Shown: positions 46,463 through 63,143 of the stretch, piece after piece
Numbering within the stretch: position 1 is the first letter of the stretch
Layout: every line of letters begins with the position of its first letter
NCBI RefSeq assembly: GCF_003751225.1
Contig: NZ_RJKE01000001.1
Span: 4,836,001-4,900,000 of the forward strand
Origin: Actinocorallia herbida
GTDB taxonomy: Bacteria; Actinomycetota; Actinomycetes; Streptosporangiales; Streptosporangiaceae
Reading direction: 5' to 3'
Length of the DNA: 64,000 nt
The notes under the pieces: model-generated
Seen by the model: only the letters and a program-made list of their open reading frames with translations
The model's database searches: none
What the model was told of the DNA's origin: nothing
Position numbers and translations under genes: made by a program

Positions 46463-46499
46463 CAAACATAATCGAACGCTCACTGTTGAAATATGTTTG
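46463..46499. promoter_or_regulatory. DeoR-type operator upstream of galTEK
   Basis: CAAACATA (46463-46470) and TATGTTTG (46492-46499) are perfect 8-base arms 21 bases apart. The left part reads TCAAACATAATCGAAC, close to a sequence before the deoR gene (see 50569-50587). TTGAAA at 46485-46490 may be the -35 of galT. The likely ligand-responsive repressor is the DeoR protein encoded downstream of galK. Confidence 0.65.
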
Positions 46500-46562
46500 G
46501 TCTTCTGGTTTTCTGGGGGTGCTCGGGGCGCGGAGACGCCGGGCCCGGCGCTGAGGAGGTCG

Positions 46563-47648
46563 GTGGGCTTGGGCGGGGTCGAGGTGAGGGCCGAGGTCGG
46601 CGGGAGGACCGTGGGGAGGCTGGCCGACGGGCGGGAGCTCGTCTACTACGACGACACGGCGGGCTTCGACCGGACCGCGGTCGACGGGCGGGTGCTGGAG
46701 CGGGCCGCGGCCGGGGCGGAGGTGCGGCGCGATCCGCTGACCGGGGAGGTCGTGCTCGTCGCGGCGCACCGGCAGACGCGGACGGTGAGCGCGGGGGCCG
46801 CGGACTGTCCGCTGTGCCCGAGTGAAGCCGGACGACCCAGCGAGATCCCGGCCGCGGACTACCACGTCGCGGTGTTCGAGAACCGGTTCCCCGCGCTGGG
46901 CGGAACTGCCGGGGGGCGCTGCGAGGTGGTGTCGTTCTCCAGCGACCACGGCAGGTCGGTGGCCGAACTGCCGGACGAACGGCTCGCGACGATCGGACGC
47001 GCCTGGGCCGAACGCACCCGGGCGCTCTCGGCGCTGCCCGGGGTCGAGCAGGTCTTCGTGTTCGAGAACCGGGGCGCGCGCGTCGGGGCCACGCTGGCGC
47101 ATCCGCACGGGCAGATCTACGCCTACCCCTACCTGCCGCCCGTGCACCGGGCGGTCCTGGAGTCGGCGCGGGCGTTCCGCGACGGGCACGGCGGCTGCCT
47201 GCTGTGCGAGATCGTGGCGCGCGAGGCCGCAGGGCCGCGCGTCGTGGCGGAGACGGACGGTTTCGTCGCCTACGTGCCGGAGGCCGCCCGCTGGCCCTAC
47301 GAGGTGCACCTCGCCCCCCGGACCTGCGCCCCCGACCTCGCCGCCCTCGACGAGACGGCGCGCGCCGACCTGATGCGCCTGTACGGCGAGGTCCTGCGCA
47401 GGTTCGCGCACCTCTTCGGCTCCGGCGAGACCCCGTACATGGCGTGCTGGCACCAGGCCCCGGTCCGGCACCGCGCCGACCTGTCGCACTTCTACGCCCA
47501 GGTGTTCACCACCCGCCGGGACGTCGACAAGTGGAAGTTCCTCGCCTCCAGTGAGTCGGGCGCGGGGGCCTTCCTCAACGACGTCCTGCCCGAGACCGCC
47601 GCGCGGAGGCTGCGCGACGCGTCGACCGATCGGAGCCCCCGTTCATGA
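46563..47648 (+). CDS. galT: Galactose-1-phosphate uridylyltransferase
   Basis: Second step of the Leloir pathway: exchanges UMP between UDP-glucose and galactose-1-phosphate. The protein has 361 residues. Zinc-site CPLC at about 82-85 and the active-site HPHGQ (180-184, nucleophile His182) are intact; the late zinc/structural region GETPYMACWHQAP is also present. The GTG at 46563 follows AGGAGG by three bases; a GTG seven codons later is an alternative, and the frame is open upstream to 46443. The stop overlaps galE by four bases. Regulation is probably by the DeoR protein at the inverted repeat upstream. Confidence 0.95.
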   Translation: MGLGGVEVRAEVGGRTVGRLADGRELVYYDDTAGFDRTAVDGRVLERAAAGAEVRRDPLTGEVVLVAAHRQTRTVSAGAADCPLCPSEAGRPSEIPAADYHVAVFENRFPALGGTAGGRCEVVSFSSDHGRSVAELPDERLATIGRAWAERTRALSALPGVEQVFVFENRGARVGATLAHPHGQIYAYPYLPPVHRAVLESARAFRDGHGGCLLCEIVAREAAGPRVVAETDGFVAYVPEAARWPYEVHLAPRTCAPDLAALDETARADLMRLYGEVLRRFAHLFGSGETPYMACWHQAPVRHRADLSHFYAQVFTTRRDVDKWKFLASSESGAGAFLNDVLPETAARRLRDASTDRSPRS

Positions 47649-48595
47649 ATCTGCTGGTCACCGGCGGCGCCGGATACATCGGGAGCGTCGTCACCGCGCA
47701 GCTCCTCGCCGAGGGGCACGAGGTCGTCGTGCTCGACGACCTGTCGACGGGCCACGCCGACGCCGTGCCCGAGGGGGCGCGGCTCGTCCGGGGCTCCCTG
47801 CGTGAGGCGGCGGAGGCCGTCCTGGCCGAGGGCGGCTTCGACGCGGTGCTGCACTTCGCCGCGAAGTCCCTGGTGGGCGAGTCGGTGGCGCGGCCCGCGC
47901 TCTACTGGGACGCCAACCTGGGCGAGTCGCTCGCGCTGTTCGAGGCGATGCGGCGCACCGGCGTCGCGAAGATCGTGTTCTCCTCCACCGCGGCCGCCTA
48001 CGGCGACCCGGAACGGACGCCGATCCCGGAGGACGCGCCGCCCCGGCCGACGAGTCCCTACGGCGCCACCAAGCTGGCCATCGACGGCGTCCTCACCGCG
48101 TACGCCCGGCTGCACGGCCTGGGCGCGGTCTCCCTGCGGTACTTCAACGTCGCCGGGGCGCACGGCCGGTTCGGCGAGCGCCATGCCGTCGAGACCCACC
48201 TGATCCCCAATGTCCTGGCCGCGGCGCTGGGGCGGCACGAGGCCGTGCGGATCTTCGGCGCCGACTACCCGACGCCCGACGGCACCTGCGTCCGCGACTA
48301 CGTCCACGTCGTCGACCTAGGCCGCGCCCACCTGCTCGCCCTCGACGCCTGCGCGCCCGGCGCGCACGTCGTCTACAACCTCGGCAGCGGCGGCGGCCAC
48401 TCCGTCGGGGAGGTCATCGACGTCTGCCGCGAGGTGACCGGCCTGCCCATCCCGGCCGTCATCGAGGAGCGGCGACCCGGGGATCCCGCGATCCTGGTCG
48501 CCTCCTCCGCCGCCATCGCCCGCGACCTGGGCTGGAAGGCCGAGCGCGGCCTTAACGAGATGGTCGCCGACGCGTGGGGGTTCGCGCGGCGATGA
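47645..48595 (+). CDS. galE: UDP-glucose 4-epimerase
   Basis: Interconverts UDP-galactose and UDP-glucose. The protein has 316 residues of the extended SDR type: NAD-binding GGAGYIG (7-13), catalytic FSSTAAAYG with Ser/Thr114-115, and YGATK with Tyr139 and Lys143. C-terminal sugar-binding motifs RYFNVAGA and RDYVHVVDL are present. It overlaps galT by ATGA and galK by ATGA, so galTEK is a single translationally coupled operon. Confidence 0.94.
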   Translation: MNLLVTGGAGYIGSVVTAQLLAEGHEVVVLDDLSTGHADAVPEGARLVRGSLREAAEAVLAEGGFDAVLHFAAKSLVGESVARPALYWDANLGESLALFEAMRRTGVAKIVFSSTAAAYGDPERTPIPEDAPPRPTSPYGATKLAIDGVLTAYARLHGLGAVSLRYFNVAGAHGRFGERHAVETHLIPNVLAAALGRHEAVRIFGADYPTPDGTCVRDYVHVVDLGRAHLLALDACAPGAHVVYNLGSGGGHSVGEVIDVCREVTGLPIPAVIEERRPGDPAILVASSAAIARDLGWKAERGLNEMVADAWGFARR

Positions 48596-62090: not shown

Positions 62091-62102
62091 CGAGCGGCTC
62101 CT

Positions 62103-63044
62103 TTAGCCCAGGTCCGAGCGGGACGCGCGCAGCATCCGCATCTGCAAGGCCGTCAGCAGGCCGAGGATGACCACGAGGACCATCGCCACAGCCGCGGCGT
62201 AGCCCATGTGGAAGTAGGTGAACGCCTGTTGGTAGATGTAGTAGTAGATGACGCGGGTCTCGGGGATCGGCGCCTTGCCGCCGTAGACGACCGCGACGGT
62301 GTCGAAGATCTGGAACGAGCCGATCATCGAGACCACCAGCACCAGCGCGAGGATCGGCCGCAGCAGCGGCAGCGTGATCGACCGGAACTTGCGCAGCTCG
62401 CCCGCGCCGTCGATCGACGCGCTCTCGTACAGGTGCTCGGGGATCTGGAGCATCCCGGCGTAGAGCAGCAGCGAGGTGTACCCGGTGTAGGCCCAGCTGT
62501 TGACCAGCGCGACCAGCGGCATCGCCCACGCGGGCGAGTTGAAGGACAGCGTCGTGTCCAGGCCCGCCGACCCGAGCAGGTGGTTGACGAATCCGAGGTC
62601 GGGGTCCAGCAGCCACGCCCACAGCAGGCCGACCGTCACGTTCGGCACGAGCCAGGGCACCAGCAGCCCGGCCCGCAGCACGACCGACCGCGTCAGCCGG
62701 TGCATCAGCGTCGCCAGCCCGAGCGCCAGCACGGTCTGCGAGGCGATGTTGACCACGACGTAGTAGCCGGTCACCTTCAGCGCGTTCCAGAACTGCGCGT
62801 CGTCGATGAGGTGCTCGTAGTTGTCGGCGCCCACGTAGGACGGGTCGTTGAGCAGGCTGTAGTCGGTGAGCGAGTACCAGACACCGCGTACCGTCGGATA
62901 GGCGTAGAACACGAGGAACCCGAGGATCACCGGCGCCAGGAACAGCCACCCGACGCGCCGGTCGTCCCGCGCCCTGCCCTTCTCCGCCACCCGGCCGACC
63001 CGCCGCTTCACCCCGGAACCGAACCGCGTTCCCGCCACCTGCAT
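62103..63044 (-). CDS. ABC sugar transporter permease, MalF-like
   Basis: The protein has 313 residues and six helices, with a basic N-terminal tail of about 25 residues (GSGVKRRVGRVAEKGRARDD). Helix 1 is WLFLAPVILGFLVFYAYPTV. The EAA loop is YESASIDGAGELRKFRSITL (about 204-223). AGGAG sits upstream of the ATG at 63044. It is first in the two-permease operon, and its promoter carries element B shared with the binding-protein gene. Confidence 0.93.
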   Translation of the reverse strand: MQVAGTRFGSGVKRRVGRVAEKGRARDDRRVGWLFLAPVILGFLVFYAYPTVRGVWYSLTDYSLLNDPSYVGADNYEHLIDDAQFWNALKVTGYYVVVNIASQTVLALGLATLMHRLTRSVVLRAGLLVPWLVPNVTVGLLWAWLLDPDLGFVNHLLGSAGLDTTLSFNSPAWAMPLVALVNSWAYTGYTSLLLYAGMLQIPEHLYESASIDGAGELRKFRSITLPLLRPILALVLVVSMIGSFQIFDTVAVVYGGKAPIPETRVIYYYIYQQAFTYFHMGYAAAVAMVLVVILGLLTALQMRMLRASRSDLG

Positions 63045-63099
63045 GCGCCCACTCCTTCTCGGTGGCCGTGCGCCGTGTCCCACGACACACCCAACGGAC

Positions 63100-63143
63100 A
63101 ATAATGATGTGGCACAGCGGAAATTTGTCAAGAGCGCATCATA
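63100..63143 (-). promoter_or_regulatory. 44-base regulatory element B (permease operon promoter)
   Basis: 37 of 44 positions match element A at 55044-55087, including the -35 TTGACA (minus strand, 63131-63126) and the ATAATGATGTGGC block around the -10. It lies 56 bases before the MalF-like start. Confidence 0.8.

What the first reader, a model, noticed from the sequence alone, without database searches (positions are those of the whole stretch)
46463..63143. A candidate galactan-use locus built around paired secreted DUF4832 proteins
Within 17 kb are galTEK, a DeoR regulator, an ROK regulator, a GH36-type alpha-galactosidase, a sugar-binding lipoprotein, two ABC permeases, a Gfo/Idh/MocA enzyme and two paralogous secreted DUF4832 proteins, one with FN3 and two CBM-like modules. 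Seen: the motifs of each family. Known: GH36 releases alpha-galactose, GalKTE metabolise it. Inferred: DUF4832 proteins are glycosidases that start degradation of an alpha-galactose-containing polymer. DUF4832 has, as far as I know, no firmly assigned substrate, so the neighbours give a testable hint.
Basis: partly seen in the sequence, partly recalled or inferred. Interest (0 to 1): 0.75.

Follow-up and report, generated by a model that had tools for sequence, protein, structure and literature searches.

The report
Alpha-galactose polymer use gene cluster
A soil-type actinomycete carries a compact gene set that probably cuts an alpha-linked galactose polymer outside the cell with two enzymes of a little-studied family, imports the pieces and finishes them inside; the neighbouring galactose genes look like a chance neighbour, but relatives in other phyla independently point to the same kind of sugar.

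Summary
galTEK and DeoR are not part of it: among 80 relatives' loci galK is near none and galT near one, and a congener without a DUF4832 match has galT-galE-galK-DeoR in the same order. A 32-bp promoter-like element occurs twice in the 9.8-Mb genome, before the binding-protein and the permease operons, and recurs in relatives.

The alpha-galactose link survives on better evidence: across phyla this DUF4832 subtype sits beside alpha-galactosidases of three families (GH36, GH31, GH4; 52 of 80 loci). A second DUF4832 branch sits in Pel exopolysaccharide clusters; one such protein (SIR_1591, mBio 2025) disrupts GalNAc-rich Pel aggregates, so 'no assigned substrate' is no longer quite true. The predicted fold is a (beta/alpha)8 barrel with invariant R112, E191, H193, R232, D248, E283 plus a beta-sandwich. 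Best reading: secreted hydrolases of an alpha-galactan-like polymer feeding import and intracellular alpha-galactosidase. Polymer and linkage are unknown; the fold, nearest to beta-galactosidases, leaves a beta-linkage rival open.

The parts
50823..51986 (-). ROK-family transcriptional regulator (HTH + ROK domain)
   Evidence: Pfam ROK 142 bits, N-terminal MarR/IclR-type HTH; profile match in 35 of 43 actinobacterial loci
52048..53541 (-). GH36-type short alpha-galactosidase, 497 aa, no clear signal segment; catalytic-type Asp at 311 (KLDF) and 371 (GPDV)
   Evidence: Pfam Melibiase 74 bits; match over residues 22-485 to solved alpha-galactosidase 6lcj_A E=3.5e-109 and over 26-425 to 1zy9_A E=2.2e-52, both Asp aligned; which Asp are catalytic is recalled
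53621..54973 (-). Sugar-binding lipoprotein of an ABC importer
   Evidence: Pfam SBP_bac_8 105 bits; LAAC lipobox (read from sequence)
55044..55075 (-). 32-bp promoter/operator-like element before the binding-protein operon, in the divergent gap to DUF4832-1
   Evidence: one of two sites in 9.8 Mb; 0 pattern mismatches at the same place in 11 of 11 loci L033-L043
55112..56515 (+). DUF4832-1: secreted protein, (beta/alpha)8 barrel plus C-terminal beta-sandwich, 467 aa; proposed catalytic E191 and E283
   Evidence: Pfam PF16116 32.7 bits; A1 alignment; AF2 pLDDT 90.2, pTM 0.87; superfamily-wide invariants
56575..59193 (+). DUF4832-2: secreted paralogue (186 of 455 aligned residues identical, 41%) with FN3 and two CBM6/CBM13-like stretches; E208/E317 equivalent to E191/E283
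   Evidence: start chosen as the ATG before a signal-like segment
59264..60445 (+). Gfo/Idh/MocA oxidoreductase, role unclear, facultative member
   Evidence: Pfam 86 bits; profile match in 8 of 43 actinobacterial and 7 of 37 other loci
61209..62090 (-). ABC sugar permease (second)
   Evidence: Pfam BPD_transp_1 71.6 bits; permease profile permB in 37 of 43 actinobacterial loci
62103..63044 (-). ABC sugar permease (first); start near 63044 inferred from the element upstream, the longest ORF runs to 63584
   Evidence: Pfam BPD_transp_1 48 bits on the long ORF; permease profile permA in 37 of 43 actinobacterial loci
63100..63131 (-). Second copy of the 32-bp element, before the permease operon
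   Evidence: in 11 of 11 loci L033-L043 a second site with 4 to 7 pattern mismatches
46443..49671 (+). galT-galE-galK operon: adjacent, judged NOT part of the conserved unit (galT start uncertain)
   Evidence: near-absence beside relatives' DUF4832; same order in a congener
49766..50545 (-). DeoR-family regulator, goes with galTEK, judged NOT part of the unit

Best explanation
This is a polysaccharide-use locus in which two secreted DUF4832 hydrolases cut an extracellular polymer rich in alpha-linked galactose. The oligosaccharides bind the lipoprotein, enter through the two permeases (no ATPase gene is in the unit, so it must come from elsewhere) and are trimmed to galactose by the cytoplasmic GH36 alpha-galactosidase. 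The ROK protein probably answers to an imported sugar and acts on a 32-bp element before the binding-protein and permease operons. Catalysis most likely uses E191 (after barrel strand 4) and E283 (strand 7), held by R112, H193, R232 and D248. Shown here: genes, conservation, co-localisation, the shared element, predicted fold, invariant residues. Inferred: secretion, catalysis, alpha linkage, polymer identity, ROK binding to the element.
For: (1) Of 200 genomes of the family, 17 have a strong match (E<=1e-50) to DUF4832-1 or its paralogue, 18 a GH36 match of at least 500 bits, 17 both; Fisher p about 1e-23 (not corrected for relatedness). In 4 of the 17 (G059, G126, G154, G175) only a paralogue-like match (41-42% identity) was seen. 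Left out of the count: 3 genomes with weak DUF4832 matches (E 1.7e-8 to 8.7e-4) and 7 with GH36 matches of about 208-219 bits. (2) In 80 loci around relatives, a GH36-, GH31- or GH4-type alpha-galactosidase lies in the stretch held (up to 10 kb each side) in 52: 37 of 43 actinobacterial, 15 of 37 other. The GH31's best solved relatives are GH31 alpha-galactosidases, E=2.8e-133 (one member tested); of 11 GH4 proteins 4 pass NCBIfam's alpha-galactosidase cut-off of 486 bits, the other 7 score 221 (a partial ORF) to 480. (3) In-superfamily control, 24 further loci: the 3 with the window's subtype have the GH31, 0 of the other 21 have any of the three, and 10 of those 21 have both pelF and pelG. 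(4) Four Pel-linked homologues match the A1 profile (E 2e-57 to 6e-53) and share R112, E191, H193, R232, D248, E283. (5) A Pel-cluster DUF4832 protein, SIR_1591, disrupts GalNAc-rich Pel aggregates. (6) The 32-bp element.
Against: 28 of 80 loci show none of the three alpha-galactosidase types in the stretch held (some are short contigs), 22 of these outside actinobacteria. The fold search is led by GH35 beta-galactosidases and other beta-active barrels; TM-scores of the GH35 hits are low (0.27 to 0.47), so the fold class is loose. The SIR_1591 assay was aggregate disruption, not product analysis. MYORG, a relative of the GH31, did not process Gal-alpha-1,4-Gal or Gal-alpha-1,3-Gal and only partly Gal-alpha-1,6-Gal. 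One relative, L082, has a window-type DUF4832 beside pelF and pelG, with a canonical DUF4832 too. E74, invariant in 53 of 53 DUF4832-1-type rows, is T in DUF4832-2. No active-site geometry could be measured.
Confidence: 0.6

Rival explanations
1. DUF4832 proteins are retaining clan GH-A-like enzymes that cut beta-galactosidic links in a backbone carrying alpha-galactose branches; GH36/GH31/GH4 only remove the branches.
For: Foldseek hits are led by GH35 beta-galactosidases, with endoglycoceramidase and other beta-active enzymes; one Pel-type relative passes the Pfam GH42 cut-off, 23.1 against 21 bits, and 1 of 53 subtype members has a weak GH42 match; glutamates after strand 4 and at strand 7 fit the GH-A scheme (scheme recalled).
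Against: Of the 15 neighbour clusters found in 10 or more of the 80 loci, the glycosidases identified are DUF4832, GH36, GH31 and GH4; no beta-galactosidase recurs, although one cluster (11) was not annotated and one (6) has no Pfam match. The Pel-linked SIR_1591 acts on an alpha-1,4-GalNAc-rich polymer. Beta-amylases, which cut alpha links with glutamates at comparable places (recalled), are also among the Foldseek hits, ranks 43 and 50.
Confidence: 0.22
2. The substrate is a Pel- or galactosaminogalactan-like polymer of alpha-linked GalNAc/GalN (with or without galactose), eaten as food.
For: Homology to Pel-linked hydrolases with shared active-site residues and activity of SIR_1591 on Pel aggregates; L082 places the window subtype beside a pel cluster.
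Against: Three associated exo-enzyme families match galactosidases. The two branches differ at E74 and H246-D247.
Confidence: 0.2
3. One reading: one galactan-use locus including galTEK and DeoR, under common control.
For: Adjacency in this genome; an Anaerolineae locus (L105) has galT between DUF4832 and GH31; metabolically sensible, since GH36 makes galactose.
Against: galK in 0 of 80 loci, galT in 1 of 80; gal order present without a DUF4832 match in a congener; the 32-bp element lies only at the importer operons.
Confidence: 0.1

Closest known systems
SIR_1591 of Streptococcus intermedius and other Pel-cluster DUF4832 hydrolases (PMC12345266; PMC7112168)
   Same: Barrel plus C-terminal DUF4832 sandwich; R112, E191, H193, R232, D248, E283 kept in four Pel-linked homologues examined here
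   Different: Those sit in an exopolysaccharide biosynthesis cluster; the window's sit with an importer and alpha-galactosidase. E74 and H246-D247 differ. SIR_1591 itself was not aligned: its sequence was not on hand
Gram-positive polysaccharide-use loci with ABC importer and intracellular exo-glycosidase (general kind, recalled)
   Same: Secreted hydrolase, binding lipoprotein, two permeases without own ATPase, cytoplasmic glycosidase, ROK regulator
   Different: The secreted hydrolase belongs to a family with no firmly defined linkage
GH35 beta-galactosidases (clan GH-A)
   Same: Barrel class by Foldseek; glutamates after strand 4 and at strand 7
   Different: GH35 hits at 9-14% identity and TM 0.27 to 0.47; no PDB sequence match above noise with protein or profiles

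Membership tests
DUF4832 (PF16116) superfamily | Pfam gathering score | tested here: met
   32.7 and 29.4 bits against 29.2; 52 of 53 subtype members match at E<=0.01
DUF4832 (PF16116) superfamily | Shared active-site residues with canonical and Pel-linked members | tested here: met
   R112, E191, H193, R232, D248, E283 in 53 of 53 subtype and 25 of 25 distant rows (11 further new rows, nine close kin and two outliers L134 and L156, left out of that count) and 4 of 4 Pel-linked rows
Pel-cluster hydrolase (SIR_1591 type) | Encoded with pelF/pelG | tested here: not met
   None of the 12 annotated window genes is a pel gene; pelF/pelG in 1 of 80 relatives' loci
GH36 alpha-galactosidase (52048-53541) | Near full-length homology to solved alpha-galactosidase and both catalytic Asp | tested here: met
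   6lcj_A E=3.5e-109, D311 and D371 aligned
GH36 alpha-galactosidase (52048-53541) | Activity on alpha-galactosides rather than alpha-GalNAc or beta-L-arabinopyranosides | not testable with these tools
   Needs assay; NCBIfam's only hit is a beta-L-arabinopyranosidase model at 51.6 bits, far below its 1100 cut-off
Clan GH-A glycosidase | Barrel fold with acid/base Glu after strand 4 and nucleophile Glu after strand 7, retaining mechanism (recalled) | tested here: inconclusive
   E191 after strand 4, E283 at strand 7; low TM-scores; mechanism not testable
GH109 (Gfo/Idh-type alpha-N-acetylgalactosaminidase) | Closest to GH109 among solved Gfo/Idh proteins | tested here: not met
   GH109 entry 6t2b_A only at E=2.3e-11, below many dehydrogenases
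Galactan locus including galTEK | Conserved linkage of gal genes to DUF4832 | tested here: not met
   galK 0 of 80, galT 1 of 80

The most novel reading that the evidence does not exclude
The window's DUF4832 subtype is a new family of endo-alpha-galactanases: a GH35-like barrel that has come to cut alpha-galactosidic links, split from the Pel-linked (GalNAc) hydrolases and spread across phyla beside three alpha-galactosidase families, perhaps for fungal alpha-1,6-galactan backbones.
Probability: 0.3. Interest if true: 0.75.

Novelty: new variant of a known kind. Interest (0 to 1): 0.52.

Why it matters
DUF4832 was found in only four papers of the 5.39 million searched, and one of them gives an activity. 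Linking a catabolic DUF4832 branch to three alpha-galactosidase families, and a sister branch to Pel clusters, gives a concrete, testable substrate class for the family and names the residues to mutate. Enzymes that cut alpha-linked galactose or GalNAc polymers matter for fungal and bacterial matrix polysaccharides and as analytical tools.

Tried and rejected
galTEK as evidence: rejected. The galT profile made from the window alone missed the galT of L105 that tblastn and Pfam found, so galT is given as 1 of 80, and a divergent galT could still be missed. GH109 for the Gfo/Idh gene: rejected. Sequence search of the PDB with DUF4832-1, with profile A1 and with profile A2 gave nothing above noise (no hit, best E 0.077 and 0.19, unrelated chains). 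The binding protein's PDB relatives are many sugar-binding proteins with no single ligand hint; NCBIfam's GanS model is hit at 76.7 bits, far below its cut-off of 700. Literature for an alpha-galactanase: searches (10 of 82 papers listed; 15 of 26 listed), listings read only, plus passages of PMC12493134, which describes an alpha-1,6-galactan core in a Cryptococcus capsule; no listed title or abstract start named an endo-alpha-galactanase. Tree of 93 rows (quick method, midpoint root, several long branches): all 10 Pel rows fall in one 28-row set (support 86) and all 38 alpha-galactosidase rows in one 62-row set (99), but 'other' rows are mixed in and the deep split is unsure; loci L128, L129, L130, L132 and L133, which repeat earlier loci, carry the label 'other'. 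Alignment A1 holds the window and 52 of the 80 loci: L110 was dropped for stop codons in the translated stretch, 27 others were not chosen.
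Full report
Observation. The gene list is right. Pfam and NCBIfam confirm galT, galE, galK, a DeoR and a ROK regulator, a melibiase-type GH36, a sugar-binding protein, a Gfo/Idh/MocA enzyme and two DUF4832 proteins, and Pfam both permeases. DUF4832-1 is 467 aa (55112-56515); DUF4832-2 is 872 aa from the ATG at 56575, with one fn3 and two CBM6/CBM13-like stretches. The two are 41% identical over 455 aligned residues. The genome has no other PF16116 match.

What belongs together. 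One scan of public genomes gave 80 loci (110 confirmed relatives, the best 80 kept) with relatives 39-78% identical to DUF4832-1 in the best segment, from Streptosporangiaceae, Micromonosporaceae, Kribbella, Microbacteriaceae, Cellulomonas, Serinibacter, Cohnella, Paenibacillus, Lachnospiraceae, Anaerolineae and others. Profiles over these loci give, for 43 actinobacterial loci: GH36 36, ROK 35, binding protein 37, each permease profile 37, GH4 11, Gfo/Idh 8, GH31 1, galT 0, galK 0, galE 0; for 37 others: GH31 15, binding protein 13, permeases 20 and 21, Gfo/Idh 7, galE 2, GH36 0, GH4 0, ROK 0, galT 0, galK 0. A galT beside the gene in L105 was missed by this profile but found by tblastn and confirmed by Pfam, so galT is 1 of 80. 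Loci vary from 4 to 21.5 kb, so some absences are due to short contigs.

galTEK. A congener, G001, has no DUF4832 match yet has galT-galE-galK and a convergent DeoR in the window's order (L121). So the gal operon exists independently, and the DUF4832 unit merely lies beside it in the window. In the five other family members examined (G052, G172, G178, G179, G194) the galK stretches of about 4 kb showed no window-type galT, galE or DeoR.

Shared control element. Two stretches, 55044-55075 and 63100-63131, both read on the minus strand, agree at 29 of 32 positions, begin with TTGACA and lie just before the binding-protein and the permease genes. A pattern with four positions left free finds, with up to 3 mismatches, only these two sites in 9.8 Mb, and none with the reversed pattern; the two sites match it by construction. 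Independent test: among 43 actinobacterial loci, 33 have a site within 6 mismatches, 10 have none within 8; the reversed and three letter-shuffled patterns give 0 of 43 within 8. In 11 of 11 of the nearest loci (L033-L043) a 0-mismatch site lies just before the binding-protein gene and a second one, 4 to 7 mismatches, before the permeases (gene places). In four Dactylosporangium loci without the importer in the stretch held (L044, L052, L057, L073; two are short contigs) a site with 5 mismatches lies within about 300 bases upstream of the DUF4832 match, though read away from it. That the ROK protein binds the element is inference.

Co-occurrence by genome. In 200 genomes of the family, 20 match DUF4832-1 at E<=0.001; 17 are strong (E<=1e-50) and 3 weak. 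In 4 of the 17 only a paralogue-like match (41-42% identity) is seen. GH36 matches at E<=1e-60 occur in 25 genomes; 18 reach 500 bits, 7 lie at about 208-219 bits and were not counted as orthologues. The 17 strong DUF4832 genomes are all among the 18; the odd one is G052. Fisher p is about 1e-23. Relatedness is not corrected for and linked genes are inherited together, so this shows linkage, not independent gain.

Independent pointers to alpha-galactose. Outside actinobacteria the GH36 is replaced in 15 of 37 loci by a GH31 of about 520 aa; the member tested (L071) has GH31 alpha-galactosidases as best solved relatives (E=2.8e-133), then MYORG (E=7.2e-65). MYORG cleaves 4MU-alpha-Gal and not 4MU-alpha-GalNAc, prefers Gal-alpha-1,4-Glc, processes Gal-alpha-1,6-Gal to some extent and not Gal-alpha-1,4-Gal or Gal-alpha-1,3-Gal (PMC9491548, abstract and section 6 read). 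The GH4 neighbours match NCBIfam's alpha-galactosidase model PRK15076; 4 of 11 pass its cut-off. L105 adds galT and a melibiase-like protein.

Control inside the superfamily. DUF4832 was sought in 398 genomes of one Bacillota class (24 with a match, 29 places) and 295 genomes of one order in it (6 with a match, 5 of them new). I read 24 regions of 17-19 kb, which cover all 5 new places and 21 of the 29; the 8 left unread group with places that were read. PelF and PelG lie in 10 of 24 regions; the alpha-galactosidase GH31 in 3 of 24 (L181, L186, L187), which are the ones with the window's subtype. The remaining 11 have neither; four of these (L182-L185) have an importer and a Gfo/Idh gene. Among the 80 window-type loci one, L082, has pelF and pelG hits, with a canonical DUF4832 too.

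Structure and residues. AlphaFold2 on 53 sequences gives pLDDT 90.2 and pTM 0.87: an eight-strand barrel (strands read by me from the DSSP line at 73-79, 108-114, 148-150, 178-182, 228-231, 243-250, 280-284, 318-320) and a C-terminal beta-sandwich. The barrel alone, with three Pel-linked rows added, gives pLDDT 93.0. Foldseek's best solved matches are GH35 beta-galactosidases and, for the barrel, also endoglycoceramidase II, with low TM-scores; beta-amylases appear at ranks 43 and 50 of the full model. R112, G190-E191-x-H193, R232, D248 and G282-E283 hold in 53 of 53 subtype and 25 of 25 distant rows and in 4 of 4 Pel-linked rows; residue 189 is W in all but one distant row (F). E191 lies after strand 4 and E283 at strand 7. 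E74, H246 and D247 mark the window's subtype (53 of 53) against the distant and Pel-linked rows; DUF4832-2 keeps H and D but has T at the E74 place.

Literature. A full-text search found four papers with DUF4832; further searches added none. PMC7112168 (passages read) places it in streptococcal and clostridial pel clusters. PMC12345266 (passages and sections 21 and 22 read) reports that SIR_1591, a barrel plus DUF4832 protein, disrupts Pel aggregates that two alpha-1,4-N-acetylgalactosaminidases also disrupt. PMC6258164 and PMC7480376 mention the domain in tables (passages read).

Reading. Secreted DUF4832 hydrolases, importer and intracellular alpha-galactosidase make a complete route for an alpha-linked galactose polymer; of the neighbour clusters seen in 10 or more loci, the glycosidases identified are DUF4832, GH36, GH31 and GH4 (one such cluster was not annotated). 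The polymer is not identified. Fungal alpha-1,6-galactan cores exist, and galactosaminogalactan and Pel are alternatives. The main doubt is the linkage: the fold leans to beta-active families, the neighbours and the Pel-linked relative to alpha.

Noticed in passing
60634-61119 (-): A small ORF between the Gfo/Idh gene and the permeases reads like a secreted peptidoglycan-binding-type protein (read by eye, no family search).
   Followed up: no
G000:C1:8520041-8521105 (outside the window), L122: A second galactokinase gene, 61% identical, with a galE beside it, lies elsewhere in the same genome.
   Followed up: partly
L060 5513-7591 (-), L061 4893-6941 (-): In loci of Acrocarpospora pleiomorpha and Nonomuraea rhizosphaerae with GH36 and importer, a further gene of the DUF4832 cluster stands beside the window-type pair; in L060 it is a canonical DUF4874-DUF4832 protein (173.9 bits), so up to three family members share one locus.
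   Followed up: partly
L082 9857-13310 and 18430-21314: Paenibacillus methanolicus: a window-type DUF4832 gene next to a canonical one and pelF/pelG hits, the only such mix seen among 80 loci.
   Followed up: partly
L047 11399-12682, L111 16357-17919, L112 16633-17919: GH4 proteins above the NCBIfam alpha-galactosidase cut-off lie close to the DUF4832 unit in addition to its GH36, hinting at a second intracellular alpha-galactosidase.
   Followed up: partly
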